DNA of 64,000 nucleotides from positions 620,001 to 684,000 of the forward strand of contig NZ_CP053941.1 in assembly GCF_013267195.1 (NCBI RefSeq), given 5' to 3'. Numbering within the stretch: position 1 is the stretch's first letter; each line of letters starts with the position of its first letter. The notes under the pieces are model-generated. The model worked only from the letters and a program-made list of their open reading frames with translations. It had not been told where the DNA came from and searched no databases. Made by a program: the position numbers and the translations under genes. Below are positions 36,922 through 50,088 of this stretch, one piece after another. Source of the stretch: Halorubrum salinarum (lineage in GTDB: Archaea; Halobacteriota; Halobacteria; Halobacteriales; Haloferacaceae).

Positions 36922-38157
36922 CTACAGGTCCCCGTTGATCGCGTCCGCGACCCGCTGCCGGTCGAAGAGCCGCTCCGCCTCTGGGATTTCCGGGTACGGG
37001 CCCTCCTCGTAGCGGGGCCACTCGCCGAACGCCTCGGGGTACAGCTGCTTCGCGGTCATCTCCAGCTGGAACAGGTTGAGGATCGGCCCCTGGTACCGGG
37101 CGCCCTGCGGGTGGACTCGGTCGTTCCTGACCGCCGTGACCTCGGAGCCGACCGGGTCGTCCTCGAAGGCGGCCCGCCGGCCGGCCATGTCGGTCCCGGG
37201 CTCGAAGCCGCCGAGGTAGAGGATCACGTCGGGGTCGGCCTCCAGGATGGTCTCGAAGTCGACGACCGTGCCGGACTCGACGCTCCCCTCGAAGGCGTCG
37301 CGCGGCCCGAGCGGGCGCGTGTGCGACGTGAGGAAGCCGGGGTTGCTCAGCGTGTACGCGTATATCTCCTCGACGTCCGCGGCGGCGATCATGATCGCGG
37401 TCGGGCGCTCCGACTCCGGCGGGAGCCCCGCCTCGATCGTCGCGAGGAGGTCCTCCCGGACGCCCGCGAGCGCCTCGTAGCGCTCGCGCTCCCGGAACGC
37501 GTCGGCGACGATCTCGAACTGCTCCCAGAGGCCGTAGTACTGGTAGCCCTCGGCCCACTCCGCGGGCGGCTCCTGGTGCCGGTCCGAGAGCGAGTTGCCG
37601 AACCACGGCGAGACGCGCTCGCCGATCTCGTCGATGTCGTCCCGGCTCCACGCGTCCTGTCGCGTGATCCACGCCGGGTCCGCGAGGTGGACGTCGCTGT
37701 TCAGTTCGTACAGCTTCTCCTTGTCCGGCTGCCACGAGGAATAGAGCCCGGACCAGTCGAGCGAAACGCCGGGGAGGCGCTCGACGAACTGGTTCCAGAG
37801 GCCGTCGTAGTAGTCCGGAGCGTGGAGGGCGGTGACGTCGTTCCCGCGGCCGAGCGCGAACGCCATGCCGGCGTGGTGCGTGAGCCGGGTGAACACCGTC
37901 TCCGGCGGCGACTCGAACGTCACCTCCCCCGTCGGCGAGATGGACGCGGTGTAGCTCCCGTCGTCCGCGGAGGAGTCGCCCGATCCGTCCGAGCCGCCGT
38001 CCCCCGAGCCGGCCTCGTTCCCGCCGTCGTCGGTCGAGTTCGGGCCCTCCGGCGGCTCGCTTCCGGCGCAGCCTGCGAGCGCTCCCACGCCGGCGACGCC
38101 GCAGTACCTGATCGCGTCGCGTCGGGTCGCCCCGGACCGCTCTGCGTCTGAGTCCAT
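36922..38157 (-). CDS. Iron-siderophore ABC transporter substrate-binding lipoprotein (paralogue 6)
   Basis: The protein has 411 residues. The signal has a twin arginine (R12-R13 in GATRRDAIRY) and a lipobox LAGC with C30, then an acidic Gly/Ser linker, so it is exported folded and anchored outside the membrane. The mature part is a FhuD/BtuF-like bilobal protein: YELNSDVHLADPAW, then YQGPILNLFQLEMTAKQLYPEAFGEWPRY and the C-terminal LFDRQRVADAINGD shared with the five other paralogues in the window. Two TTTAGG-N4-CCTAAA-type palindromes and a TATA box lie just upstream. It heads the 58-residue / flavoprotein / DUF operon; no permease is in this unit. Confidence 0.88.
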   Translation of the reverse strand: MDSDAERSGATRRDAIRYCGVAGVGALAGCAGSEPPEGPNSTDDGGNEAGSGDGGSDGSGDSSADDGSYTASISPTGEVTFESPPETVFTRLTHHAGMAFALGRGNDVTALHAPDYYDGLWNQFVERLPGVSLDWSGLYSSWQPDKEKLYELNSDVHLADPAWITRQDAWSRDDIDEIGERVSPWFGNSLSDRHQEPPAEWAEGYQYYGLWEQFEIVADAFRERERYEALAGVREDLLATIEAGLPPESERPTAIMIAAADVEEIYAYTLSNPGFLTSHTRPLGPRDAFEGSVESGTVVDFETILEADPDVILYLGGFEPGTDMAGRRAAFEDDPVGSEVTAVRNDRVHPQGARYQGPILNLFQLEMTAKQLYPEAFGEWPRYEEGPYPEIPEAERLFDRQRVADAINGDL

Positions 38158-38161
38158 GTGG

Positions 38162-38177
38162 TTTAGGCCACCCTAAA
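38162..38177. promoter_or_regulatory. Iron box A (DtxR-type palindrome), proximal
   Basis: TTTAGGCCACCCTAAA, perfect 6-base arms around 4 bases, lies 5-20 bases before the start codon of the gene at 38157. It would cover the predicted transcription start, with the TATA-like TTTATTTC just beyond it. Confidence 0.85.
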
Positions 38178-38197
38178 GAAATAAATCGGTTTCGAAT

Positions 38198-38213
38198 CTT
38201 AGGCGGGCCTAAA
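38198..38213. promoter_or_regulatory. Iron box B (DtxR-type palindrome), distal
   Basis: CTTAGGCGGGCCTAAA matches the palindrome at 5 of 6 arm pairs. It lies 41-56 bases before the start codon at 38157, upstream of the TATA box, so boxes A and B bracket the core promoter. Confidence 0.8.
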
Positions 38214-38350
38214 GAGTTCGGCGAGTCGGGGGAAACCGCGCCCGAACCGGCCGGTCGAGGCGGTGGTCGAGCGCGGTCACGGGGACCGGTCGGGGTCCGT
38301 GGTTCGAGCGCTCTCCCCGAAGGCGGGGACGGACTCGTCCGGTTCCCCGG

Positions 38351-38677
38351 TCAGAACGGCGGGCTGTAGTCCTCGTACTCGTCCATCTCGTCCATCTCGT
38401 CGGTCTTCGACGGCATCACCGCGGCTCGCGGACCGCCGGACCGCACGACTTCCACGTCTTCGAGGCCGTCGACGCTCTCCGGCAGGCGGCGCTCGATGGC
38501 CTTCATCGTCATCGGGGCGATACCACAGCCCGAACACGCGCCGCCGATGGCGACGGTCGCCGTTCCCGCCTCCTCGTCGACGTCGCGTATCTCGAAGCTG
38601 CCGCCGTGCTGCTGGATCTGCGGGACTTCGTTGCTCAGGTAACTCCGCGTCTGCCGTTCGAGTCCTTCTGCGCTCAT
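38351..38677 (-). CDS. NifU C-terminal-domain (Nfu-type) Fe-S scaffold/carrier protein
   Basis: The protein has 108 residues. The Nfu domain spans about residues 1-75 (LERQTRSYLSNEVPQIQQHGGSFEIRDV, TATVAIGGACSGCGIAPMTMKAIERRL) with the cluster-binding C-x-x-C in ACSGCG. The Met/Asp/Glu-rich tail DEMDEMDEYEDY is extra. It delivers or stores Fe-S clusters. The ATG at 38677 fits a TATA-like TTTATGATAC about 27 bases upstream. An iron box (38719-38734) lies 42-57 bases upstream, the same position as the distal boxes of the transport genes, so Fe-S assembly seems to be in the same regulon. Confidence 0.9.
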   Translation of the reverse strand: MSAEGLERQTRSYLSNEVPQIQQHGGSFEIRDVDEEAGTATVAIGGACSGCGIAPMTMKAIERRLPESVDGLEDVEVVRSGGPRAAVMPSKTDEMDEMDEYEDYSPPF

Positions 38678-38718
38678 TGCGTTCTCACGTTCGACGCATA
38701 GTATCATAAAACTGTGGT

Positions 38719-38734
38719 ATTAGGGTACCCTAAA
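38719..38734. promoter_or_regulatory. Iron box C upstream of Nfu gene
   Basis: ATTAGGGTACCCTAAA has a palindromic core TTAGGGTACCCTAA and lies 42-57 bases before the Nfu start codon, beyond its TATA box, in the distal position seen at the transporter promoters. Confidence 0.8.
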
Positions 38735-38884
38735 AACACGCGATAGAGGCTATATATAGGATATATACCGATATTCCGCTGATAAGTAATTACGTTCTGT
38801 TATTTTTCGCACCGCCTAAAACGGGACGGCGGTCGGTACCGGTCTGCCGGATTCGGCCGGGGCGAGGGCGCGTCCGGGCCTGGG
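38735..38884. other. A+T-rich spacer between Nfu promoter and regulator gene
   Basis: Contains two close TATATA stretches (TATATATAGGATATATACC) and GTTATTTTTCG. No gene is seen. It may hold the end of the regulator transcript and extra upstream sequence for Nfu. No second palindrome is evident. Confidence 0.4.
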
Positions 38885-39304
38885 TCAAGACCGCTCGTCG
38901 TCGGTCGTCGCCGACGCGTCGTCCGCGTCGGTTCCCGTGCCATCGCCCGTCTCGACGGGGAGTGTCTCCGCGAGGCGTTCGGCGACGATCGGACTGACGA
39001 GCCCCGCCACCCGCATCGCCTGACCCTCCGAGTCGTCGAGGTCCAAGACGCTCCGGAAGAACCACGAGACGGTCACGTAGGTCTCGTGTAGCTCCGCGGC
39101 CCGCTCGCGTCCCGCGTCCGTCAGCGTCGCGCCCTCGTACGGTCGGTACTCGACGAGGCCGTCGTCGTCGAGCCGCTGGAACGTCTCGGTGACCGTGGCC
39201 GGCGACCGGTCGAGCGCCTCGGCCACCGCGCCCGTCCCGATCGGCTCCCCGTTCCGATGCCCGAGGATGTACACCGCCAAGAGGTACTGCGGGGCGCCGG
39301 TCAT
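38885..39304 (-). CDS. DtxR-fold regulator with degenerate metal site, in iron region
   Basis: The protein has 139 residues. The winged helix is at about 1-65 (PQYLLAVYILGHRNGEPIGTGAVAEALDRSPATVTETFQRLDDDGLVEYRPYEGATLTDAGRERA), then a dimerisation region with the DtxR-like spacing of LDLD and AERL. Aligned by eye to Corynebacterium DtxR, the metal ligands are changed: H79 to Tyr, E83 to Ser, C102 to Met, E105 to Ala, H106 to Gly. It has no SH3-like domain. It overlaps the upstream 55-residue gene (ATGA), whose operon begins at an iron box. It is a candidate binder of these boxes, perhaps as a heterodimer. Confidence 0.83.
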   Translation of the reverse strand: MTGAPQYLLAVYILGHRNGEPIGTGAVAEALDRSPATVTETFQRLDDDGLVEYRPYEGATLTDAGRERAAELHETYVTVSWFFRSVLDLDDSEGQAMRVAGLVSPIVAERLAETLPVETGDGTGTDADDASATTDDERS

Positions 39305-39468
39305 CGCTCGCCCCCTCGCGTCTCGCCGTCGGCCCCGGTCGACGACGGTCCGTCGGCGTCGTCGGCGCCGTCCCCTTCCTCACGCCCGTCACCGGGACCG
39401 AAAGTCGCGAGGAACGTCCAGGCCCACGCCTGAGCGCGCCGACCTCGCGGTCCGCTTCCCACGGTCAT
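39301..39468 (-). CDS. 55-residue protein coupled to the DtxR-like gene
   Basis: The ATG at 39468 overlaps the stop of the 263-residue gene by four bases, and its stop overlaps the regulator ATG by four bases. The product begins MTVGSGPRGRRAQAWAWTFL then ATFGPGDGREEGDGADD, so a short basic stretch and an aromatic segment are followed by an acidic Gly-rich tail. It is too short for a full membrane protein, though AWAWTFLATFG could touch a membrane. No family is known to me. The overlaps at both ends are the evidence for translation. Confidence 0.6.
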   Translation of the reverse strand: MTVGSGPRGRRAQAWAWTFLATFGPGDGREEGDGADDADGPSSTGADGETRGGER

Positions 39469-40256
39469 ACCCTCCGAACGAGGTGTCTCCGCACCGCCCG
39501 CTGGCAGTCGTCACACGTCGCGTCGAGCGTCGCGACCGTCGACAGGACGGGGTGATCGACGGGGAAGTCGCGGTAGAGGTACGGCGGGAGCCGCCGGTGA
39601 GCGACGGCGGCCTCGGCCCCGTTGCTCGTCGTGCCGTTCAGAAACTCCTGTCGGCGCCGCGCCAAGTCCGCACACCGCGATCGGAGCTCGTCGAGCGTCT
39701 CGTGTCGCGTCTCGAGCGCCCCGAAACCGAGCGCCGTGAGCGGCGTCTCGTCGAGGGCCGCGAGGCGCTCGACGACGGCGTCGACGGCGTCGGCGGCGTC
39801 GGACAGGTGCGCCGCCTCGCGGGCGAGCGCCCCCTCGAGCGCCTTGACCTCGTTCCGACGGGCGGCCGTCTCGGCGACGACCGTTCGCTTCAGCTGCGGA
39901 CTGAACGAGGCGTCGGTCGCCGGCGAGAGCGCCAGCGCGATCGACTCGGTGAGCTCCGAGCGGACCGTCTCCAGCAGCGACTCGTCGCCGGATCCCTCGA
40001 CGTCGTCGAGGCTGTGTGGCCGGACCGTCTCTTCGAACGCCCGACGGACGTCTCGGCAGCGGGCGTCGCCCGCCGATCTCACGCGGTGTTCCGTTCCGGT
40101 GACGGCGGCGCCCGTCGACGCGACCGGCGTCGGATCGGTCGATATCGACCGAACGCGGCGGTCGAACCGCTCGAACGCCGTCCGTTTCGCCTCGAGGGCC
40201 TCCCGCTCCGTCCGAACGCGGGTCCGAGCGCGTTCGACGTACGTGTCGACGCTCAT
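39465..40256 (-). CDS. DUF7260-like haloarchaeal helical protein, iron-box operon
   Basis: The protein has 263 residues and is mostly helical without membrane segments: SVDTYVERARTRVRTEREALEAKRTAFERFDRRV, FEETVRPHSLDDVEGSGDESLLETVRSEL, and a C-terminal part with a single C-x-x-C (DATCDDCQRAVRRHL). It resembles the haloarchaeal DUF7260 family (number from memory), whose function is unknown. It is followed by the 55-residue gene and the DtxR-like gene, each with ATGA overlaps. The only promoter seen is an iron box with TATA at about 40455-40481, almost 200 bases upstream, so the operon is probably iron-controlled. Confidence 0.72.
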   Translation of the reverse strand: MSVDTYVERARTRVRTEREALEAKRTAFERFDRRVRSISTDPTPVASTGAAVTGTEHRVRSAGDARCRDVRRAFEETVRPHSLDDVEGSGDESLLETVRSELTESIALALSPATDASFSPQLKRTVVAETAARRNEVKALEGALAREAAHLSDAADAVDAVVERLAALDETPLTALGFGALETRHETLDELRSRCADLARRRQEFLNGTTSNGAEAAVAHRRLPPYLYRDFPVDHPVLSTVATLDATCDDCQRAVRRHLVRRV

Positions 40257-40336
40257 CCCAGGGCCTCTCCGTCGACGACGGCGACCGCGATCCGTGTGGC
40301 CGCGCTCGTCCGTCCGACAATGTCGGTCCGTACCAT
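40253..40336 (-). CDS. Possible 27-residue leader peptide
   Basis: ATG 40336 opens a short frame (MVRTDIVGRTSAATRIAVAV then VDGEALG) whose stop overlaps the ATG of the 263-residue gene by four bases. It lies in the 194-base leader implied by the iron-box promoter. It could couple translation to the next gene. Length alone makes it uncertain. Confidence 0.3.
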   Translation of the reverse strand: MVRTDIVGRTSAATRIAVAVVDGEALG

Positions 40337-40339
40337 GGT

Positions 40340-40450
40340 TCAGGCGTTGTTCGGACGGCCGGCCTCGGTCCGCCGACCGGGCGACGTGCTCGCGCGGGTC
40401 CGAACGGTTCTCCGAGTCGATCCGGTGTCGGTGCGGTTCCCTCCGAGCAT
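40340..40450 (-). CDS. Possible 36-residue first ORF of iron-box transcript
   Basis: ATG 40450 lies exactly 5 bases from iron box D and about 27 bases from a TATA-like TTGTATTTTT, the same geometry as the leaderless starts at 38157 and 50031. The product (MLGGNRTDTGSTRRTVRTRA then STSPGRRTEAGRPNNA) is not family-like. It may be a leader peptide or simply the 5' end of the message. Confidence 0.3.
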   Translation of the reverse strand: MLGGNRTDTGSTRRTVRTRASTSPGRRTEAGRPNNA

Positions 40451-40454
40451 ATGT

Positions 40455-40470
40455 TTTAGGCCAGCCTAAA
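40455..40470. promoter_or_regulatory. Iron box D (DtxR-type palindrome)
   Basis: TTTAGGCCAGCCTAAA has perfect 6-base arms. It is followed upstream (on the minus strand) by a TATA-like TTGTATTTTT. It faces the operon of the DUF7260-like protein, the 55-residue protein and the DtxR-like regulator, which suggests autoregulation. Confidence 0.85.
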
Positions 40471-40610
40471 AATACAAGAAAGTACCGGTCAGTACGCCCC
40501 CGAAACGGGACGCGTCGTCACGGTCCGCTCCACACGGAGTCCGCGCTCGCGGCCCGGCCGCGGGCCGGTCCCCCCGGGTGTGACCGCGGCGCGGAAACGT
40601 CCGCCCGCGG
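40471..40610. other. Spacer behind the last tandem binding-protein gene
   Basis: Contains a GC-rich hairpin, CGGCCCG at 40550-40556 pairing with CGGGCCG at 40561-40567, just past the end of the binding-protein operon; it may help end that transcript. No gene is seen. Confidence 0.35.
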
Positions 40611-41819
40611 TCAGGCGTCGCCGGTGACAATGGCGCTCACCGCGTCGCGGTCGAACAGTTCGCCGCTGTACGTGTCGGGGTACAGAAGCGTCGCGAACCG
40701 CTCCGTCAGGAACAGGTTCTGGATCGGTCCCTGATATATCGGGCCGCCGCGGTACACCGCGCCGCTCTCGACGGCGGTCAGTTCGCTTGCGACGCTGTGT
40801 TCCTTCATGAACGCCAAGACGGTGTCCTCGAACTCGGCGCGGGTCTTGGTCTCGTGGCCGCGGACGAACAGCGCGTCGGGATCGACCTCCAGCATCGTCT
40901 CGTAGTCGATCTGTCCGCGGTCGTCCGTCGAGAGGCCCTCGACGCCCGTCCCGGAAAGCGCGTCCGAGACGCCCAGGTCGCGGAAGTGCTTCTTGTTAGT
41001 CCCCTTGTCGGTGAGGCGGTACGGCGAGAACTTCTCGGGCGCATCGGACCCGGCGAAACACAGCAGCCCCGCGGGCCGGGCGTTGGCCGCCGGGAGGTCC
41101 GCCTGGACCCGCGCGAGGAGGTCGTCGTGGAGAGACGCGAAGGCCCGGAAGCGGTCGCCCTGCCGGAATATCTCCGCGACCTTCTCGAAGGCCTCGTACA
41201 TCGTGTAGTACCGGTAGTCGTGCCACGGGTCGGTCCGACGGAAGTTCGCGTTGCCGACGAACGGCGCGACGTTCTCCGTCAACTCCGTCACGTCGCCCTC
41301 GTCGAGTCCGAAGAAGGAGTTGTTGAGCAGCCACTGCGGGTCGGTGAGGTGGACGTCGCTGTCGAGCTCGTAGTACAGCTCCTTGTCGATCCCCTCGTCG
41401 TACAGCTGCGTGACCTCGCCTTTGTCGACCGAGACGCCGTCGAGCTCGTCGTAGTACGACGTGTGGTACCGCGACTTGACGCCGACCGCGGCGAGGCCGT
41501 CGGCCTGTCCGAGCGCGACGCCCATGTCGGCGTAGCCCGGGAAGTACGACTCCCACGTCTCCGGGACGCCGTCGAATGCGACCTCGCCGACCGGCGCCAT
41601 CTCGACGCTGTACTCGGTGGTGTCGGTCGTCTCGTCGGTGCCGTCAGAGTCCGCGGTCTCGTTCGTCGCACCGCCCGTCTCGTTGGCCGGGGGCGTCGCG
41701 TCGTCGTCGGAGCCGCCGGTACAGCCGGCGAGCAGCCCGCCGCCGACGACCGCGCCGCCGAACTTCACGTAGTCCCGCCGGGTCGATTCTCCGGTCGTGG
41801 TGATGTCGTCGTCGCTCAT
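40611..41819 (-). CDS. Iron-siderophore ABC transporter substrate-binding lipoprotein (paralogue 5)
   Basis: The protein has 402 residues. Tat signal with R14-R15 (STRRDYVKFGG) and lipobox C33 (LLAGC), then an acidic Asn/Thr-rich tether. The binding part has YELDSDVHLTDPQW, DYRYYTMYEAFEKVAEIF and IYQGPIQNLFLTERFATLLYPDTY. The C-terminal motif is diverged (LFDRDAVSAIVTGD, where the others have VADIVNGD). It is third in a tandem of three, one base after the stop of paralogue 4, and is transcribed from the iron box at 44318. Paralogues this different in the binding lobes probably take different ferric siderophores. Confidence 0.88.
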   Translation of the reverse strand: MSDDDITTTGESTRRDYVKFGGAVVGGGLLAGCTGGSDDDATPPANETGGATNETADSDGTDETTDTTEYSVEMAPVGEVAFDGVPETWESYFPGYADMGVALGQADGLAAVGVKSRYHTSYYDELDGVSVDKGEVTQLYDEGIDKELYYELDSDVHLTDPQWLLNNSFFGLDEGDVTELTENVAPFVGNANFRRTDPWHDYRYYTMYEAFEKVAEIFRQGDRFRAFASLHDDLLARVQADLPAANARPAGLLCFAGSDAPEKFSPYRLTDKGTNKKHFRDLGVSDALSGTGVEGLSTDDRGQIDYETMLEVDPDALFVRGHETKTRAEFEDTVLAFMKEHSVASELTAVESGAVYRGGPIYQGPIQNLFLTERFATLLYPDTYSGELFDRDAVSAIVTGDA

Positions 41820-41820
41820 G

Positions 41821-43080
41821 TCAGGCGTCTCCGTTGATGATGTCCGCAACGCGCTGTCGGTCGAACAGCCGCTCGCCGTCGGGGATCGCGGGGTAGGCGT
41901 CGCCGTGGTCGTAGCCGGGCCACTCGCCGAACCGCTCCGGGTACAGCTGCTTCGCGGTCATCTCCAGCTGGAACAGGTTCATGATCGGGCCCTGAACCGG
42001 GTTCCCGGACGGGTAGAACCGGTCGTTCTCGACCGCGGCGAGTTCGCTCGCGACGGGGTGGTCCGCCAGCTCCTCGCGGACCGCGCCCACGTCGTAGTAG
42101 GAGGCGATCCCGAACTGGTGGAGGACCACGTCGGGGTCGACCTCCAGCAGCGCCTCGTGGTCGTACGTCGTCTCGTAGGTGACCTCGTCGCCGGCGAAGG
42201 CGTCGGGGGCGCCGAGCGGTCGGACGTGCGCGTTCGCGAACCCGGGGCCGTCGGTCCGCGAGGGGTAGTAGGTCCCGTCCATGTAGATGAGCGTCGCGAC
42301 CGTTGGCCGGTCCTCGGCCGGCGGGAGGTCGCTCCGGACCGTCTCGAGCAGGTCCTCGCGGACCGCGTCGAGCGCGGCGAACCGCTCCTCCTCCCGGAAG
42401 ACGGCGGCGACGCGCTCGCCGATGTCCGGGAGCGCGTAGTACTCGTACCGGTCCCGACACGGCTCCGGCGGCTGCGAGCGCCGCCGGCTGTAGATGTTCC
42501 CGAACCACGGCCCGACGTTGTCGCGGATCTCGGCGACGTCGTCCTCGGTCCACCCGTCGAAGGAGACGAACAGGCAGGGATCCGCGAGGTGGAGGTCGCT
42601 GTCGAGCTCGTAGAGCAACTCGCGGTCGACGGAGATGCCGCCGCCGGAGCCCGTGTTGAGCTGCGCGAGCCCGTCGCGGTCGAAGGAGACGCCGTCGAGG
42701 TCGGCGTAGTAGGCGTCCAGCGTGTTCCCGCCGGCGTCGGCGTCGAAGCCGAGCGAGTTGACCGCGTCACCGTGGCCGAGCGCGACGGCCAGGTCGGCGT
42801 ACAGGAGGCTGTAGACCATGATGTCCTCCGGGACCGCGTCGAACGCGACTTCGCCGGCCGGAGCCATGGTCGCCGTGTAGCCGGGGTCGGCCGTCGAGCC
42901 GTTCGAGTCTCCCGTCGCGTCGGACCCTTCCGTCGCGTTCGACCCGCCGGTCGTCTCGTCGTCGGTCGCGTTCGACCCGGGGCCCTCGGAGCCGCCGGTA
43001 CAGCCGGCGAGCAGGCCCCCGCCGACGACCGCGCCGCCGTACGTCAGGTAGTCGCGTCGGGTCGGAGCGTCGTCGCGCAT
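41821..43080 (-). CDS. Iron-siderophore ABC transporter substrate-binding lipoprotein (paralogue 4)
   Basis: The protein has 419 residues. A very short n-region holds R8-R9 (APTRRDYLTYGG), with lipobox C27. The binding domain contains YELDSDLHLADPCLF, VGPWFGNIYSRRRSQ, VQGPIMNLFQLEMTAKQLYPERFGEWPGYDHG and the C-terminal LFDRQRVADIINGD. It is the middle gene of the tandem, with single-base spacers on both sides. It resembles paralogue 6 in the LNLFQLEMTAKQLYP segment more than it resembles its immediate neighbours, which hints at shuffling among copies. The substrate is inferred to be a ferric siderophore. Confidence 0.88.
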   Translation of the reverse strand: MRDDAPTRRDYLTYGGAVVGGGLLAGCTGGSEGPGSNATDDETTGGSNATEGSDATGDSNGSTADPGYTATMAPAGEVAFDAVPEDIMVYSLLYADLAVALGHGDAVNSLGFDADAGGNTLDAYYADLDGVSFDRDGLAQLNTGSGGGISVDRELLYELDSDLHLADPCLFVSFDGWTEDDVAEIRDNVGPWFGNIYSRRRSQPPEPCRDRYEYYALPDIGERVAAVFREEERFAALDAVREDLLETVRSDLPPAEDRPTVATLIYMDGTYYPSRTDGPGFANAHVRPLGAPDAFAGDEVTYETTYDHEALLEVDPDVVLHQFGIASYYDVGAVREELADHPVASELAAVENDRFYPSGNPVQGPIMNLFQLEMTAKQLYPERFGEWPGYDHGDAYPAIPDGERLFDRQRVADIINGDA

Positions 43081-43081
43081 C

Positions 43082-44314
43082 TCAGTAGTCCCCGTTGACG
43101 ATGTCCGCGACGCGCCGGTAGTCGAACAGCCGGGCCTCGGGGTCGGAGAGGGTCTCGATCCCGTTCCACTCGCCGAAGGCGTCGGGGTAGAACTGCTTTG
43201 CGGCCGCCTCTGTCTGGAAGAGGTTGATGAGCGGCCCCTGATACGACGTGCCGCCGCGGTAGAGGCGGTCGTTCTGGACCGCGGTCAGCTGCTTGCCGAC
43301 CGGGTCCTCGCGCATCGCGTCCATGCGCCGCTCGAACTCCTCGGCCGAGACGTGCGAGAAGCCGTACTGGAACAGCAGGGCGTCGGGGTCGACCTCGAGG
43401 ATCTGCTCGTAGTCCCACTCGGCGTAGCCCCCCTCGATGGCGTCGTCGAAGGCCCCGCGCATCTCCACGTCCCGGTACTGCTTGTGACCGTTGCCGTCGT
43501 TGACCGGGTACGCGTAGAAGGTACCGTTCTCGAAGTCGGAGTTGACCGAGAGGAGCCCGACGGTCGGCCGCTCGGCCTGGTCGGGGAGTCGCGACTCGAT
43601 GTCCGCGATCAGCCCGTCGTGGACCGACTTGAGCGCCTCGTAGCGCTCGCGCTCTTGGAACACGTCGGCGACGACCTCGAAGGCCTCGTACAGCGAGTAG
43701 TACCGGTAGTCGTGCCAGTCCTCGCCGCGGCGACGGATGGAGTTGCCGACGATCGGACCCACGTTCGTCGCCACCTCCTCGTAGTCGGCGTCCGTCCACG
43801 TGTCGTCGAGGAGGCTGATGAAGTTCGGGTCCATCAGGTGGACGTCGGCGTCCAGCTCGTAGAACGACTCCTTGTCGATCCCGCCGTCGCCCATGAGCTG
43901 GGCGACGCCGTCGAAGGAGACGTCGACGTCGGGGAGGTGGTCGAAGAACCCGAGCGGCCAGTTCTCGGTGAAGATCAGCCCCTGAAGCCCGTCGAGCTGA
44001 CCGAGCGCGATGCCCATGTCGCCGTACGTGCTGAAGTACGCCATCCAGCGCTCGGGCACCGCGTCGAACGCGACCTCGCCCATCGGGGCCATCTCGACGG
44101 TGTAGCCCGCGTCGGCCGTCGACTCGGCCGCGGCGTCGTCGTCCGAGCCCGCGGTCCCGTTCGTCGCGTCGGACGTCTCGTTGCCCTCGGGCGCCGAGCT
44201 GTCGTCCGAGGTGCCCGCGCAGCCGGCGAGCACTCCCGCGCCGACGACCGCGCCGCCGTACTTCACGTAGTCTCGCCGGGTCGGCGCCCGACGCTGGCTT
44301 CGTTCGTCTGCCAT
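43082..44314 (-). CDS. Iron-siderophore ABC transporter substrate-binding lipoprotein (paralogue 3)
   Basis: The protein has 410 residues. Tat motif R13-R14 (APTRRDYVKYGG), lipobox C32, acidic tether. The binding domain includes YELDADVHLMDPNF, WHDYRYYSLYEAFEVVADVFQERERYEAL, YQGPLINLFQTEAAAKQFYPDAFGEW and LFDYRRVADIVNGDY. It is the first gene of the three-gene tandem. A perfect iron box begins four bases from its ATG and a TATA-like AATTTTTAG overlaps it. It is separate from the ATPase gene (stop 44416) by about 100 bases, so it has its own promoter. Confidence 0.88.
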   Translation of the reverse strand: MADERSQRRAPTRRDYVKYGGAVVGAGVLAGCAGTSDDSSAPEGNETSDATNGTAGSDDDAAAESTADAGYTVEMAPMGEVAFDAVPERWMAYFSTYGDMGIALGQLDGLQGLIFTENWPLGFFDHLPDVDVSFDGVAQLMGDGGIDKESFYELDADVHLMDPNFISLLDDTWTDADYEEVATNVGPIVGNSIRRRGEDWHDYRYYSLYEAFEVVADVFQERERYEALKSVHDGLIADIESRLPDQAERPTVGLLSVNSDFENGTFYAYPVNDGNGHKQYRDVEMRGAFDDAIEGGYAEWDYEQILEVDPDALLFQYGFSHVSAEEFERRMDAMREDPVGKQLTAVQNDRLYRGGTSYQGPLINLFQTEAAAKQFYPDAFGEWNGIETLSDPEARLFDYRRVADIVNGDY

Positions 44315-44317
44315 ATT

Positions 44318-44333
44318 TTTAGGTCGACCTAAA
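44318..44333. promoter_or_regulatory. Iron box E (DtxR-type palindrome)
   Basis: TTTAGGTCGACCTAAA is a perfect 16-base palindrome lying 4-19 bases before the start codon at 44314, so it would cover the predicted transcription start of the three-gene binding-protein tandem. Confidence 0.88.
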
Positions 44334-44415
44334 AATTGAAAAGGATTCTGATCCGTCGATCCCCGACGGAGCGCCGTGCGCCACCGATCCGGGATCGACC
44401 GCGCCGGTCGCGAGC

Positions 44416-45336
44416 CTACTCGTCGCCGCCGTCGGCCCGCGCGACGCGCTCGCTCGGGCGCTCGCGGTCGTCGTCGTGCCGGGCGCGGAGCGGTTCGATC
44501 CGGGGCCCTCGCGGCGTCCGGTCGACCGCGGCGTCGATCTCGAACACCTCGGCGAGCAGGTCCTCGGTGACGACCTCCTCCGGCGTGCCGCGGGCGCGGA
44601 TCGCGCCGTCCTTGAGCGCGACCACGCGGTCGGCGACCCGCGCCGCCTGCTCGATGTCGTGGAGGACGACGACCACGGTGACCTCGCTCTCGTCTCGGAG
44701 CGTCTCGATGATCTCCATCACCTCCATCTGGTGGTGGAGGTCGAGGAACGTCGTCGGCTCGTCCAAGAGGAGCACGTCCGTGTCCTGCGCGAGCGCCATC
44801 GCGATCCACGCGAGCTGTTTCTGCCCCCCGCTCAGGCTGCCGACCTCGCGGTCCCTGAGGTGACCGCAGCCCGCCAGCTCGATGGCGCGGTCGACGGCCG
44901 CCTCGTCCTCGTCGGTCGTCGTCTCGAAGAACCCGCGGTGCGGGTAACGTCCGTGGTACACCAGGTCCTCGACGGTGATGCTGTTCGGCGAGGTGCTCTC
45001 CTGCGAGAGCAGCCCCATCGTCCGTGCGAGCTCCTTCTTGTCGAACGAGCCGATCTCTCGGCCGTCGACGAGCACCGAGCCGGCGTCGGGCGCGAGCTGG
45101 TCGGCGAGCCCCTTCAGCAGCGTGCTCTTGCCGGACCCGTTCGGACCCACGAGCGCCGTCACCGCCCCGCTCGGGGCCGTGATCGACTCGCCGTCGACGA
45201 CGGGCCCGTCGCTCGCGGGGTACGAGAGGACGAGGTCCTCCCCGTCGAGGCGACCGCCGGCCTCGGCGTCCCGACCCGCGTCGGCCTCGGTCTCGGTCGG
45301 GCGCTTCGACTCGCCCGCGGTCGGTTCGAGCGCCAT
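44416..45336 (-). CDS. Iron-siderophore ABC transporter ATP-binding protein (FecE/FhuC type)
   Basis: The protein has 306 residues. Walker A is GPNGSGKST at 64-72, the signature LSGGQ at 168-172, and Walker B VLLLDEP at 188-194, with TMGLLSQESTSPNSITVEDLVYHGRYPH typical of iron-chelate importers. The N-terminal 30 residues and the C-terminal 45 are acidic or charged halophile additions. It overlaps the permease stop by one base (ATGA), so both are co-translated. It is the only ATPase for six binding proteins in this window. Confidence 0.93.
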   Translation of the reverse strand: MALEPTAGESKRPTETEADAGRDAEAGGRLDGEDLVLSYPASDGPVVDGESITAPSGAVTALVGPNGSGKSTLLKGLADQLAPDAGSVLVDGREIGSFDKKELARTMGLLSQESTSPNSITVEDLVYHGRYPHRGFFETTTDEDEAAVDRAIELAGCGHLRDREVGSLSGGQKQLAWIAMALAQDTDVLLLDEPTTFLDLHHQMEVMEIIETLRDESEVTVVVVLHDIEQAARVADRVVALKDGAIRARGTPEEVVTEDLLAEVFEIDAAVDRTPRGPRIEPLRARHDDDRERPSERVARADGGDE

Positions 45337-46460
45337 CAGATCTCACCCATCCGTTCCTGTCTGCGCATCAGGTAGAGGAAGTACGGTCCGCCGACGAGCC
45401 CGGTCACGATGCCGACCGGGATCTGCGCGTCGGAGCCGACGAGCACCGCCATGCCGAGGCGCGCGCCCACGTCGGCGGCGACCAGCAGCGCCGGGCCGGC
45501 GAACAGGCAGCCGATCACCAGCTTCCGGTAGTCGCTCCCGACGATGTTGCGCACCATGTGCGGGACGATCAGCCCGACGAAGCCGACGATTCCCGCCACG
45601 GCGATGCTCGCGGACGCCGCGAGCACCGCGACGCCCGAGAGGGCGAACCGGACCTTCTCGACGCTCATCCCGAGCGAACTGGCCGTGCGCTCGCCGAGCA
45701 GCAGGACGTTCAGCTGCCGGGAGCTGACCAAGGCGAGCAGCATCGCGACGGCGGTCCACGGCAGGGCCATCCGGACCTGCTCCCAGTCGGTGCCCGTCAG
45801 CGACCCGGTGGTCCAGGAGATGGCCGACTGGACGACGCCGATGTCGTCGGCGAAGAAGAACAGCGCCGTCTGGAGGCTGCTGAACACCGTCCCGACGATG
45901 ACCCCCGCGAGCACGAGCCGGACGGGCGAGGTGCCGTTCTTCCACGCGATGGCGTAGACGACGAGGAACGCGACCGCGCCGCCGACCGAGGCGATGAGCG
46001 GGAGGAACGCCGCCAGCCCCGAGAACACGACGAGCGTCAGCAGGATCATCAGGCCCGCGCCGGAGGAGACGCCGAGGATGAACGGGCTCGCCAGCTCGTT
46101 GCGCGTGACGGCCTGGAAGATGGCGCCGGAGACGGCGAGGTTCATCCCCACGAGCATCGCGACGAACACCCGCGGCAGCCGGATGTTCCAGACGATGAGG
46201 CTCTGTTTCCCCATCTCCGGGAGCTCGGCCCCGAGGAGGAACGCTCGCCACGCCTGCGCGTCGAAGACGACGCGGGGGTCGAACACCGCCTGCCACGCGT
46301 CGACGATCGTCATCGAGAACGCGCCGAAGCTCACCTGAGCGAGCCCGCCGAGGACGACGACCGCGAGGCTCGCCGCACACAGCGTGAACAGCGAGCCGTC
46401 GAACCAGCCGAACCACTGCTCGCGCCAGCCGGCCGCCCCGGCGGAGGTGCCCGTCGCCAC
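45336..46460 (-). CDS. Iron-siderophore ABC transporter permease (FecCD family)
   Basis: The protein has 374 residues and about nine to ten membrane helices after a short N-terminal tail. Family landmarks are IRLPRVFVAMLVGMNLAVSGAIFQAVTRNELASPFILGVSSGAGL and GIVGFVGLIVPHMVRNIVGSDYR with the coupling helix. The GTG at 46460 lies two bases after the flavoprotein stop, with a GGGGGG stretch before it that may act as SD; no ATG fits. One permease gene usually means a homodimer. It is co-transcribed with the flavoprotein and binding proteins 1 and 2 upstream. Confidence 0.92.
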   Translation of the reverse strand: MATGTSAGAAGWREQWFGWFDGSLFTLCAASLAVVVLGGLAQVSFGAFSMTIVDAWQAVFDPRVVFDAQAWRAFLLGAELPEMGKQSLIVWNIRLPRVFVAMLVGMNLAVSGAIFQAVTRNELASPFILGVSSGAGLMILLTLVVFSGLAAFLPLIASVGGAVAFLVVYAIAWKNGTSPVRLVLAGVIVGTVFSSLQTALFFFADDIGVVQSAISWTTGSLTGTDWEQVRMALPWTAVAMLLALVSSRQLNVLLLGERTASSLGMSVEKVRFALSGVAVLAASASIAVAGIVGFVGLIVPHMVRNIVGSDYRKLVIGCLFAGPALLVAADVGARLGMAVLVGSDAQIPVGIVTGLVGGPYFLYLMRRQERMGEI

Positions 46461-46462
46461 GG

Positions 46463-47494
46463 TCAGGATCCCCCCAGCGTCGCGCCGAGTTCGGCGGCGC
46501 GGTCCCGAACGCTGTCCTCGTCGACCGCGTCGAGCAGCGTCTCGTCGTCGACGCCGTCGAGTAGCGTTTCGGTGTCGACGGCGTCCAGCAGCGTTTCGGC
46601 GTCGAGGGCCCCGGCCACTCGGTCCGCGTCGAGGTGCGACGCGAGCGCGGCCTGCCCCTCGGCGGCGCGCTCCTCGATCTCGTCCGGCTCGACGTACGAC
46701 GAGAGCGACTCGTCGATGGCCGCGGCGCGGACGCGCCGGTAGCGGTCGGAGTCGGTGTCGACGGGCGCGTCGTCGCCGTAGTGGTCGTCGAACCACTCGG
46801 TCCACCGGTCGCGGTCGTTCCACTCGTCGTCGAGTTCGGCCTCTCGGCGCACCCAGTCGACGCCGTCCGCGACCGCTTCCCACCAGCCGTCGTCGATCCG
46901 GGCGTCGGCGATGACGCGGTGGGCGACGCGGGCGCCGCGGCCGGCGGCCATGATCGCCTGGGTGTCTGTTTCGTCCGAGGGCGAGGCGACGTAGAGCCCG
47001 TCGACGGGCGTCGTCCCGTCACGGTCGGGGTACTCGCGGTCGAACCAGTCGTGCTCCTCGTCGCCCTCCTCGTACGTCTCGAACATCGCCGCGTCGTCGT
47101 CGAGTCCGCGCAGGTACGAGCCGTCGTAGCGCGTCGCCGCGATCACGCGGCGAGCGGTGACCGGGTCGCCCTCCTGCGGAGTGACGACGAAGCCCTCGCC
47201 GTCGTCGGCGCGGGCGACCGACTCGACGAGGTCGGAGTCGATCTCGCAGCCGGCGGTCTCGGCGTGGTCGTGGATCAGCCCGTACAGCGTCTCGATGTCG
47301 ATCCCGGCCGGGAAGCCGAGGTAGTTTTCGAGGTGCGCGCAGCGCTTGAGCGACGACCGGCCGCGGTCGAAGACGACCGTGTCGAGCCCCTCGCGGGCGC
47401 AGAACACGGCCGCGGAGCAGCCGGCCGGGCCGCCGCCGACGACGGCCACGTCGCGGTCGCAGTCGTGTGTCGCTTCGGGGTCGGTGGTGCTCAT
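46463..47494 (-). CDS. Thioredoxin-reductase-like FAD oxidoreductase with repeat tail, in siderophore operon
   Basis: The protein has 343 residues. The FAD-binding start is VAVVGGGPAGCSAAVFCAREGLDTVVFD, then LKRCAHLENYLGFPAGIDIETLYGLI, matching the paralogue at 35742. The second FAD contact is PVDGLYVASPSDETDTQAIMAAGRGARVAHR. There is no CxxC. The C-terminal 70 residues carry near-repeats of D-x-ETLLDAVD (residues about 295-330) not seen in the paralogue. It sits between binding protein 2 (three bases) and the permease (two bases). I infer a role in reducing or modifying the imported ferric siderophore. Confidence 0.83.
   Translation of the reverse strand: MSTTDPEATHDCDRDVAVVGGGPAGCSAAVFCAREGLDTVVFDRGRSSLKRCAHLENYLGFPAGIDIETLYGLIHDHAETAGCEIDSDLVESVARADDGEGFVVTPQEGDPVTARRVIAATRYDGSYLRGLDDDAAMFETYEEGDEEHDWFDREYPDRDGTTPVDGLYVASPSDETDTQAIMAAGRGARVAHRVIADARIDDGWWEAVADGVDWVRREAELDDEWNDRDRWTEWFDDHYGDDAPVDTDSDRYRRVRAAAIDESLSSYVEPDEIEERAAEGQAALASHLDADRVAGALDAETLLDAVDTETLLDGVDDETLLDAVDEDSVRDRAAELGATLGGS
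46520..46607 (-). repeat. Imperfect tandem repeats in flavoprotein gene tail
   Basis: Roughly 30-base units encode DAETLLDAVD, DTETLLDGVD and DETLLDAVDED one after another. The amino acids are kept more strictly than the third bases, so the repeats are not brand new. Confidence 0.75.
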
Positions 47495-47497
47495 CGG

Positions 47498-48781
47498 TCA
47501 GATGTCACCGTTGACGATGTCTCGGACGCGCTGGCGGTCGAACAGCCGTTCGCCCTCGGGCACGTCGAGTGGCGCCTCCGTGTCGACTTCGCCGAACTCC
47601 TCGGGGTAGAACAGCCGGGCCGTGAGCTCCGTCTGGAAGGCGTTGACCAGCGGGCCCTGCTCGGCGGTCGGACCGGGCACGACGCGCCCCTCTTCGACCG
47701 CAGTGAGTTGGCTCCCGACCTCGTCGTTTTCCATCGGCGCGACGAACTTCTCACGGAACCGCTCGGCGTCGAACGCCCCGTCACCGCCGAAGGTGACCGA
47801 CCCCGTGGTGACGCCCCAGTGGACGACGATGACATCCGGGTCCACTTCGAGCAGCGTCTCGTAGTCCGTCTTGCCGTACTGGCCGGTCTCGACGCCGGCG
47901 AAGGCGTCAGCGTCGACGAGTCCGAGGTCTCGGTAGGGCTTCATCTCGTAGCCGTTGTCCTCCAGATACAGCGCGTAGAACTCGCCGTTCTCGGGCGAGG
48001 AGCCGGAGTTTATCAGGCCGATGGACGGTGTCTCGCCGTCGTCGGGGAGCCGCGATTCGACCTCGGACTGGAGGTCCTCGTGGAGGTCGAGCCACGCCTC
48101 GGTCCGGGCCCGTTCGTCGAGCACAGTTCCGACCTTCTCGAACGCCTCCAACATCGACGGGGCCCGTTCGGGGTAGCCCATCTCCTGTTGCCAGTCGCTT
48201 CTGATGCGACGGTTGTGGCAGCCGAAGAACGGCCCGACGTTCGATTCGATCTCCTCGACGTCGGAGTCGTCCCAGTTGTCGTCCCAGGCCTGGATCAGGT
48301 TGGGGTCGATGAGGAACGCGTCTGGGTCGTGTTCGTAGAGTACCTCCTTGGGGATCCCGCCGTCCTGCCACAGCGGTGGCCAGTCGTTGTCGTAGTCGAT
48401 GTCGAGCCGGTCGTAGAAGAGCGTGGGCGCGCTCAGTCGGTTTGTCTGGAGTTTGTCCGCCTGACCGAGCGAGACCACCATATCGGCCCACCCCATGTTG
48501 TACGTCGTGACCGCCTCCGGGACCGACTCGAACTCCACCTCGCCGACGGGGAACATCTCGACCGAGTACGAGCCGTCCTCGGCCGTGTCCGCCGACCCGT
48601 CGTCGGTCGAGGACCCCGTCTCGTTCGTCGAGCCCGTCTCGGTGCCGTTCGAGTCCGGCGTCGAACCGGACTTGGATCGGCCCGCGCAGCCGGCGAGCAG
48701 GCCGCCGCCGACCACCGCGCCGCCGTACTTGACGTAGTCGCGTCGGCTCGGTGCCGTCGTGTCGGTGTCGTCGTCGCTCAT
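47498..48781 (-). CDS. Iron-siderophore ABC transporter substrate-binding lipoprotein (paralogue 2)
   Basis: The protein has 427 residues. Tat motif R13-R14 (APSRRDYVKYGG), lipobox C32 (LLAGC), then a Ser/Thr/Asp tether. The binding domain is the most diverged of the six: YEHDPDAFLIDPNLIQAW, YPERAPSMLEAFEKVGTV, AEQGPLVNAFQTELTARLFYPEEFGEV, and the conserved end LFDRQRVRDIVNGDI. It lies two bases after paralogue 1 and three before the flavoprotein, clearly one operon with the permease and ATPase. It may serve a chemically different siderophore from the others. Confidence 0.88.
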   Translation of the reverse strand: MSDDDTDTTAPSRRDYVKYGGAVVGGGLLAGCAGRSKSGSTPDSNGTETGSTNETGSSTDDGSADTAEDGSYSVEMFPVGEVEFESVPEAVTTYNMGWADMVVSLGQADKLQTNRLSAPTLFYDRLDIDYDNDWPPLWQDGGIPKEVLYEHDPDAFLIDPNLIQAWDDNWDDSDVEEIESNVGPFFGCHNRRIRSDWQQEMGYPERAPSMLEAFEKVGTVLDERARTEAWLDLHEDLQSEVESRLPDDGETPSIGLINSGSSPENGEFYALYLEDNGYEMKPYRDLGLVDADAFAGVETGQYGKTDYETLLEVDPDVIVVHWGVTTGSVTFGGDGAFDAERFREKFVAPMENDEVGSQLTAVEEGRVVPGPTAEQGPLVNAFQTELTARLFYPEEFGEVDTEAPLDVPEGERLFDRQRVRDIVNGDI

Positions 48782-48783
48782 GG

Positions 48784-50031
48784 TTAGAACTCCCCGTTGA
48801 CGATGTCCGCGACGCGCTGCGGGTCGAACATCTCACCGAGTCCGCCGGTGTTTCCGGGTTCCGGCGGCTCGCCGAACAGGTCGGGGTAGATCTGTTTCGC
48901 GGTGAGTTCGATCTGGAAGATGTTGATGATCGGTCCCTGGAACGCGTCGCCGCTCGCGTAGAGGCGGTCGTTCTCGACCGCGGTGAGCTCCTTCCCGACC
49001 GGGTGCTCGTCGAGGGCGAAGAACGCCTCCGTCGCCTCGTCGGGGTTCTGCCAGTCCGAGAAGTGGAGGAGCACGTCGGGGTCGGCGTCGAGCATCGCTT
49101 CCATGTCGATGAGCGCGCTGTCGGACCAGCCGCTCCGGGGACCGCTGTCGAACTCGGAGAGCGCGTCGTTCGCCCGCAGCGGCCGGGTGTGCGCGTTCTG
49201 GAATCCCGGCTCGTTCAGGTGGTACACCCAGAAGGCTTCCTTCTTCTGATCGTACCAGACGACGCCGACCTCGGGCCGCTCCGACTGCGGCGGGAGGTCC
49301 GCTCGGATGTCCGCGACCATCTCGTCGCGGACGGCCTTCAGCTCTGCCCCGCGCTCCGGCACCTGATACGCCTGCGCGTACTTGTCGACCAGTTCCCAGA
49401 TGGTGTAGAACTGGTAGTCGGACGCGCTGTCGGGCGCGATGTTCGTCCGGCTGTGGTAGTTGGCGAAGAACGGGGCGATGTTGGACTCGATCTCGTCGAA
49501 GTCGGCGTCGTCAAACGAGGACCAGCCGCCCATCCACACCGGGTCAATGTGGTGGACGTCGCTGTCGAGCTCGTAGAACACCTCCTTGTCGACGCCGTCG
49601 TCGTAGAGCTTCGTCAGGTCGCCCGTGTCGAGGGAGACGCCCGGGAGCTCGTCGTAGTACTGCGCGCTGTAGTTCTCGGGGAAGCCCAGCGACGAGATGA
49701 CGTCGGACTGGCCGAGCGAGACGAGAATGTCGGCGTCGTGGTTGGAGTACACGGCCGCCGTCTCCGGGACCGCGTCGAACTCCACCGTACCGGCCGGCGA
49801 CATCGTCACCGAGTACCCGGTGTCCTCGGTCGACTCCTCGGCGCTCGTCGTCCCGCCGTCGTCCCCCTCCGTCGTCTCGTTTTCCGTCTCCGGGTCGTCG
49901 TCCGTCGGCCCCGACGAACTTCCGGCGTCGGACGTACAGCCGGCGAGCAGGCCGCCGACCCCGACGGCGGCGCCGTACTTGACGTAGTCCCGTCGAGACG
50001 ATTCCAGCCGGTCAGGCCGTTCATCTGCCAT
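48784..50031 (-). CDS. Iron-siderophore ABC transporter substrate-binding lipoprotein (paralogue 1), operon leader
   Basis: The protein has 415 residues. Tat motif R13-R14 (SSRRDYVKYGA), lipobox C32. The binding domain includes YELDSDVHHIDPVW, YQFYTIWELVDKYAQAY, FQGPIINIFQIELTAKQIYPDLFGEPP and the end MFDPQRVADIVNGEF. It is the first gene of the operon paralogue 1 - paralogue 2 - flavoprotein - permease - ATPase. Two iron boxes (50036-50051 and 50073-50088) with a TATA-like TTGAATAG between them lie directly upstream, in the same layout as at 38157. Confidence 0.88.
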   Translation of the reverse strand: MADERPDRLESSRRDYVKYGAAVGVGGLLAGCTSDAGSSSGPTDDDPETENETTEGDDGGTTSAEESTEDTGYSVTMSPAGTVEFDAVPETAAVYSNHDADILVSLGQSDVISSLGFPENYSAQYYDELPGVSLDTGDLTKLYDDGVDKEVFYELDSDVHHIDPVWMGGWSSFDDADFDEIESNIAPFFANYHSRTNIAPDSASDYQFYTIWELVDKYAQAYQVPERGAELKAVRDEMVADIRADLPPQSERPEVGVVWYDQKKEAFWVYHLNEPGFQNAHTRPLRANDALSEFDSGPRSGWSDSALIDMEAMLDADPDVLLHFSDWQNPDEATEAFFALDEHPVGKELTAVENDRLYASGDAFQGPIINIFQIELTAKQIYPDLFGEPPEPGNTGGLGEMFDPQRVADIVNGEF

Positions 50032-50072: not shown

Positions 50073-50088
50073 TTTAGGCCGGCCAAAA
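50073..50088. promoter_or_regulatory. Iron box G, distal, main transporter operon
   Basis: TTTAGGCCGGCCAAAA is a weaker match (right arm CCAAAA). It is 42-57 bases before the start codon at 50031, the same position as box B. It lies only four bases from the stop of the HEAT-repeat gene. Confidence 0.65.

What the first reader, a model, noticed from the sequence alone, without database searches (positions are those of the whole stretch)
38885..39304. DtxR-fold regulator that has lost the canonical metal ligands
By-eye alignment to DtxR places Tyr, Ser, Met, Ala and Gly where DtxR has H79, E83, C102, E105 and H106, while the winged helix is intact. A protein that sits in the iron region yet seems unable to bind Fe2+ in the usual way may sense iron differently or act as a partner of another DtxR-type protein (a two-protein Idr1/Idr2 regulator is known in Halobacterium).
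Basis: partly seen in the sequence, partly recalled or inferred. Interest (0 to 1): 0.6.

Follow-up and report, generated by a model that had tools for sequence, protein, structure and literature searches.

The report
Metal-blind relative of haloarchaeal regulator Idr
This gene encodes a small DNA-binding protein of the iron-repressor (DtxR) family that, with its whole clade of salt-loving archaeal relatives, has lost the residues that grip iron, and it very probably learns about iron indirectly, because its own gene is switched by iron-responsive DNA boxes read by other regulators.

Summary
Profile and structural comparison place Tyr76, Ser80, Met97, Ala100 and Gly101 where DtxR has H79, E83, C102, E105 and H106; H98 is Glu93, the Met10/Asp8 position is Gln, and the FeoA/SH3 domain is absent. 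This is no local decay: a single clade (100/100 support; at least 47 of 195 Halobacteriales genomes) shares the loss, and both domains are under purifying selection. Gene order (aconitase HVO_0541 - DUF6069 - DUF7260 - this gene - Dps) identifies it as the orthologue of Haloferax volcanii Idr (HVO_0538), a named iron-homeostasis regulator. 41 of 46 orthologues lie beside a 14-bp TTAGGNNNNCCTAA iron box, often a pair 36 bp apart enclosing BRE/TATA. Boxes also occur in genomes lacking the gene, so other regulators (TroR, SirR) read them. Best reading: Idr is a metal-blind second-tier regulator whose abundance, not metal occupancy, carries the iron signal; partnership with TroR is possible but untested. 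Unexpectedly, TroR (HVO_0863), the primary iron regulator, also lacks most DtxR ligands and instead carries four invariant cysteines.

The parts
38885..39304 (-). Idr-type metal-blind DtxR-fold regulator (139 aa): wHTH 1-62, dimerisation-domain helices 63-85, 92-99 and 105-114, disordered acidic tail 119-139
39465..40256 (-). DUF7260 protein (PF23921, 4.6e-73), upstream gene of the same operon; also directly upstream of idr in Haloferax (HVO_0539 equivalent)
40456..40469 (.). Iron box TTAGGCTGGCCTAA (minus strand) of the DUF7260-idr operon, after a TATA-like stretch and 5 nt before an ATG at 40450
38720..38733 (.). Iron box TTAGGGTACCCTAA (perfect palindrome) between idr and nfu, next to the nfu start codon
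38351..38707 (-). NifU-domain (Nfu-like) Fe-S protein; found within 2.5 kb of idr in 11 of 46 loci
38163..38176 (.). Iron box (proximal of a 36-bp pair), 5 nt before the ATG of the substrate-binding protein gene 36922-38157
38199..38212 (.). Iron box (distal of the pair); BRE/TATA-like CGAAACCGATTTATTTC lies between the two boxes
36922..38157 (-). Iron-siderophore-type substrate-binding lipoprotein (PF01497)
40611..41849 (-). Iron-siderophore-type substrate-binding lipoprotein (PF01497); one of several in 36.9-50.0 kb
44319..44332 (.). Iron box TTAGGTCGACCTAA
50037..50050 (.). Iron box TTAGGCTCGCCTAA (a one-mismatch copy lies at 50074-50087)

Best explanation
The protein is the orthologue of Haloferax volcanii Idr (HVO_0538): a two-domain DtxR-fold transcription regulator that has lost the DtxR metal sites and the FeoA/SH3 domain, and so most likely folds and dimerises without metal. 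Iron information reaches it through transcription: its operon has an iron box at the core promoter, read by an iron-responsive paralogue (most likely TroR, possibly SirR). When iron falls the box is released, Idr is made, and its intact recognition helix carries a second-tier signal to DNA, probably at iron-box-like TTAGG half-sites because it shares the S-P-A...E recognition pattern of TroR. Shown here: ligand loss, fold, clade, Idr gene order, iron-box linkage. Inferred: metal independence, homodimer, targets, direction of regulation.
For: Ligand loss clade-wide and under purifying selection; single clade 100/100; fold match to DtxR/MntR; no cysteine and no complete alternative set of conserved ligands; gene order acnA-DUF6069-DUF7260-this gene-Dps in Haloferax, with HVO_0541 = acnA (PMC3828320) and HVO_0538 = Idr (PMC11349517); iron box within 2.5 kb upstream or 1.5 kb downstream in 41 of 46 loci, against roughly 0.02 expected per locus from the genome-wide box density; the same 14-bp consensus TTAGGNNNNCCTAA is proposed for IdeR/DtxR (PMC8464063); paired boxes enclose BRE/TATA; IdeR without its SH3-like domain is a stable dimer without metal (PMC10317159).
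Against: No binding, expression or metal data were produced here. Three acidic positions stay conserved (E74, E93, E95), so a weak or new site cannot be excluded. The model is a monomer, so dimer geometry is unknown.
Confidence: 0.62

Rival explanations
1. Obligate partner: Idr works as a heterodimer (or subunit-exchange inhibitor) with TroR or SirR, contributing a DNA-binding half while the partner senses iron, as the first reader suggested from Idr1/Idr2 of Halobacterium.
For: TroR-type proteins are the nearest paralogues (about 35% identity) and share S34-P35-A36 and E40 in the recognition helix and VAERL in the last helix; both are present in the idr-bearing genomes examined in detail.
Against: The resemblance may be common ancestry only; TroR-type proteins are found in almost all Halobacteriales whether or not Idr is there, so TroR does not need Idr. 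No complex was modelled.
Confidence: 0.22
2. Alternative site: Idr binds a metal or another small ligand through new residues (for example E74, Y76, E93, E95) and is a direct sensor after all.
For: E93 is acidic in 51/51 members, E74 in 49/51, E95 in 49/51, and Y76 is invariant.
Against: The window protein itself has Q at 95; E95 is also invariant in TroR-type proteins, which like this clade keep Arg110, so a salt bridge is likelier; no His or Cys is invariant.
Confidence: 0.11
3. Ordinary metal-dependent DtxR/MntR repressor, as public annotation says ('metal-dependent transcriptional regulator').
For: Annotation of orthologues in Haloferax mediterranei and Halobaculum; family fold.
Against: All primary-site ligands and most ancillary-site ligands are lost across the clade.
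Confidence: 0.04

Closest known systems
Idr, HVO_0538 of Haloferax volcanii (named as an iron-homeostasis DtxR regulator; PMC11349517)
   Same: Same clade, same upstream DUF7260 gene, same kind of iron-box promoter; a Haloferax orthologue reads Y-S-E-M-V-G at the ligand positions
   Different: In Haloferax it lies between aconitase and Dps; here it lies inside a siderophore-uptake and nfu cluster. The locus tag is inferred from gene order
TroR, HVO_0863 (called the primary iron regulator in the title of Martinez Pastor 2024, cited in PMC11349517)
   Same: Nearest paralogue, short two-domain DtxR, also lacks H79, C102 and H106; own-genome copy L004/L036
   Different: TroR keeps E83 and E105 and has four invariant cysteines (YC, CPxC, C); Idr keeps neither
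Canonical DtxR with FeoA domain, SirR-type (three copies in this genome)
   Same: wHTH and dimerisation fold
   Different: Keeps H79, E83, H98, D102, E105, H106 and the C-terminal FeoA/SH3 domain
DtxR/IdeR and MntR of bacteria
   Same: Fold (Z 14-15); the regulon's operator equals the 14-bp TTAGGNNNNCCTAA proposed for IdeR/DtxR
   Different: Those need Fe2+ or Mn2+ at ligands that are absent here
Idr1/Idr2 of Halobacterium salinarum
   Same: DtxR-type regulators of iron homeostasis
   Different: Which of the two corresponds to this clade could not be tested: sequences and the primary papers were not available here

Membership tests
DtxR/MntR family | N-terminal winged helix-turn-helix (PF01325) | tested here: met
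   50.6 bits over a 26-bit cut-off; 17/17 aligned homologues match
DtxR/MntR family | C-terminal metal-binding and dimerisation domain (PF02742) | tested here: inconclusive
   Own protein 15.2 bits, below the 27-bit cut-off; 15/17 homologues match at E 0.01, Haloferax orthologue 28.5 bits; the fold superposes
DtxR/MntR family | Metal ligands (M10/D8, H79, E83, H98, C102/D/E, E105, H106) | tested here: not met
   Q, Y, S, E, M, A, G in the window protein; nearly the same pattern clade-wide
DtxR/IdeR subfamily | C-terminal SH3-like/FeoA domain | tested here: not met
   139 aa; residues after 118 are modelled with very low confidence
Idr (HVO_0538) orthologue group | Same clade, distinct from TroR and SirR | tested here: met
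   Clade 100/100, including Haloferax members
Idr (HVO_0538) orthologue group | Conserved gene order with acnA (HVO_0541) and DUF7260 | tested here: met
   Haloferax order acnA-DUF6069-DUF7260-orthologue-small ORF-Dps; DUF7260 precedes the gene in 15/46 loci, this window included
Iron-box regulon member | TTAGGNNNNCCTAA at its promoter | tested here: met
   40456-40469 here; 41/46 loci have a box near the gene
TroR family | Invariant YC + CPxC + C cysteines | tested here: not met
   No cysteine in the protein
Idr1/Idr2-type two-protein regulator | Joint (heteromeric or cooperative) DNA binding with a second DtxR protein | not testable with these tools
   Needs pull-down, native MS or ChIP

The most novel reading that the evidence does not exclude
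Haloarchaeal iron control has moved off the DtxR metal site altogether: TroR senses iron (or an Fe-S cluster or redox state) through a four-cysteine site, and Idr is a metal-blind relay or antagonist on the same iron boxes whose amount reports the iron state.
Probability: 0.25. Interest if true: 0.8.

Novelty: new variant of a known kind. Interest (0 to 1): 0.5.

Why it matters
Databases call these proteins 'metal-dependent transcriptional regulator', and the name Idr implies iron sensing; the conserved sequence says the protein cannot bind iron the DtxR way. If so, experiments that treat Idr as a sensor would misread the haloarchaeal iron network, and the network becomes a testable case of a sensor family that evolved a non-sensing relay. 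Genetically tractable Haloferax species carry the gene.

Tried and rejected
Pseudogene or decay: rejected (dN/dS about 0.03-0.4, conserved motif YVxxSWFF). The box being specific for Idr: rejected, genomes without Idr keep a median of 10 boxes against 19 with it. Using box absence to tell whether TroR or SirR reads the box: inconclusive (G101 has a TroR-type protein but 1 box; G058 shows no canonical hit but 11 boxes, possibly an assembly gap). Phage origin: no match in phage records. Primary papers on TroR/Idr (PMC10783522, PMC5737653, PMC3074139, PMC4285986) are not held, so their data could not be checked.

Full report
OBSERVATION. The ORF at 38885-39304 (-) encodes 139 residues. Its N-terminal half is a clear DtxR winged helix (PF01325, 50.6 bits, cut-off 26), while its second half scores only 15.2 bits for the metal-binding and dimerisation domain (cut-off 27). 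I anchored DtxR numbering with IdeR (PDB 1fx7), aligned residue by residue to a canonical DtxR of the same genome. A model built from 17 relatives (mean pLDDT 83) matches DtxR over residues 1-118 (Z about 15, rmsd 2.5) and MntR over 1-123, so the register is sound. There is no FeoA/SH3 domain.

IT IS A CLADE. Relatives with E below 1e-25 occur in 47 of 195 Halobacteriales genomes. In 51 collected members Tyr is 51/51, Ser 43, Met 42, Ala 42 and Gly 46 at the five positions. A maximum-likelihood tree of 101 DtxR-type proteins puts them in one clade, 100/100, on a long stem. Pairwise dN/dS is 0.03-0.17 within Haloarcula and its neighbour Halosimplex, and up to 0.4 for more distant pairs, in both the DNA-binding and the ligand-less domain; the distant values are rough because synonymous sites approach saturation. 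The protein is maintained, not decaying. The same genome keeps three canonical paralogues with all ligands.

WHICH KNOWN PROTEIN. A primer described as flanking HVO_0863 (PMC6801745) hits three Haloferax genomes, and the DtxR ORF lying inside the amplicon span is the short, near-universal haloarchaeal paralogue; so HVO_0863, TroR, belongs to that family. In the same genomes the present clade has a member. In the one of these loci that I annotated, the order is aconitase - DUF6069 - DUF7260 - orthologue - small ORF - Dps. HVO_0541 is acnA (PMC3828320), so three genes on is HVO_0538, which is Idr (PMC11349517). The distance from the canonical gene (about 290-320 kb) fits HVO_0819 to HVO_0538. 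This identification is by gene order, not by locus tag. From memory, and not checked because the paper is not held, the abstract of Martinez Pastor 2024 says that TroR represses Idr; that would agree with the promoter evidence below.

REGULON. TTAGGNNNNCCTAA occurs six times exactly in the window and 14 times in the genome, against none for the reversed control. This is the 14-bp consensus proposed for IdeR/DtxR (PMC8464063). Of 46 distinct orthologue loci, 37 have a box within 2.5 kb upstream and 41 have one upstream or within 1.5 kb downstream; from about 18 boxes in 3.7 Mb one expects about 0.02 per locus. In several species the gene stands alone behind its own box, or beside Dps, away from uptake genes, so the linkage is not mere hitch-hiking in a siderophore cluster. 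In 23 distinct promoters with two boxes 36 bp apart (24 rows, one promoter listed in both orientations) the 22-bp spacer mostly reads AAACCGAA...TTTATA (BRE and TATA), and in 22 an ATG follows box 2 by 4 or 5 nt; Haloarcula promoters keep this layout column by column. Boxes placed so should block TBP/TFB and the start site. In the window the DUF7260-idr operon has one box, 5 nt before an ATG. Genomes without the gene still carry boxes (median 10 against 19), so a near-universal regulator reads them.

MECHANISM. Most likely iron acts on TroR or SirR; these hold the idr operon off; on iron loss Idr appears and acts on DNA without metal. The recognition helix is strongly kept (S34, T39, E40, Q43, R44) and shares S-P-A...E with TroR, where IdeR uses Ser37, Pro39, Thr40 and Gln43 (PMC10317159), so Idr should still bind DNA and may use the same half-sites. 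IdeR without its SH3-like domain dimerises without metal (PMC10317159), a precedent for a metal-free dimer. Whether Idr represses, activates or competes is not known from these data.

RIVALS. A TroR-Idr heterodimer is not excluded. A new ligand site would have to use E74, Y76, E93 or E95; no His or Cys is invariant, and the window protein has Q95. Ordinary metal dependence, as in public annotation, is disfavoured by the sequence.

A SECOND SURPRISE. TroR itself lacks H79, C102 and H106 and instead has four invariant cysteines (YC, CPxC, C) in 27/27 sequences. I could not test what they bind.

LIMITS. No wet data, no multimer model, primary papers unavailable, organism unnamed.

Noticed in passing
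L004/L036 (own genome C1:1144471-1144839) and Haloferax loci L147-L149 at 2060-2509: TroR-type proteins (HVO_0863 family) have lost H79, H98, C102 and H106 but carry four invariant cysteines (TYC, CPxCF, C), 27/27 sequences: a possible Fe-S or zinc site in the primary haloarchaeal iron regulator.
   Followed up: partly
window 38163-38212; 23 promoters: Paired iron boxes exactly 36 bp apart enclose the BRE/TATA, with an ATG 4-5 nt after the second box; box pairs 36 bp apart also occur in genomes without the idr gene.
   Followed up: yes
window 40450-40340 (-); Haloarcula L046-L054: Between the iron box and the first recognisable gene of idr operons there is often a leaderless ATG opening a short reading frame (about 36 codons in the window).
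   Followed up: no
L142, L146, L137, L140, L134: Further short haloarchaeal DtxR-type proteins carry cysteine clusters (for example HPCxxxCSAP...C), suggesting a radiation of cysteine-based DtxR variants.
   Followed up: no
L044 (Salinivenus MAG contig): A bacterial MAG contig holds a 76% identical orthologue with two iron boxes; more likely a mis-binned haloarchaeal contig than gene transfer.
   Followed up: no
L084, L086, L087, L154: The idr gene lies convergent with a Dps/ferritin-like gene in these loci, a second iron-related context besides siderophore uptake.
   Followed up: partly
window 36922-50031 (-): Several tandem paralogous iron-siderophore-type binding lipoproteins surround a single FecCD/ATPase pair and two thioredoxin-reductase-like FAD proteins.
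   Followed up: no
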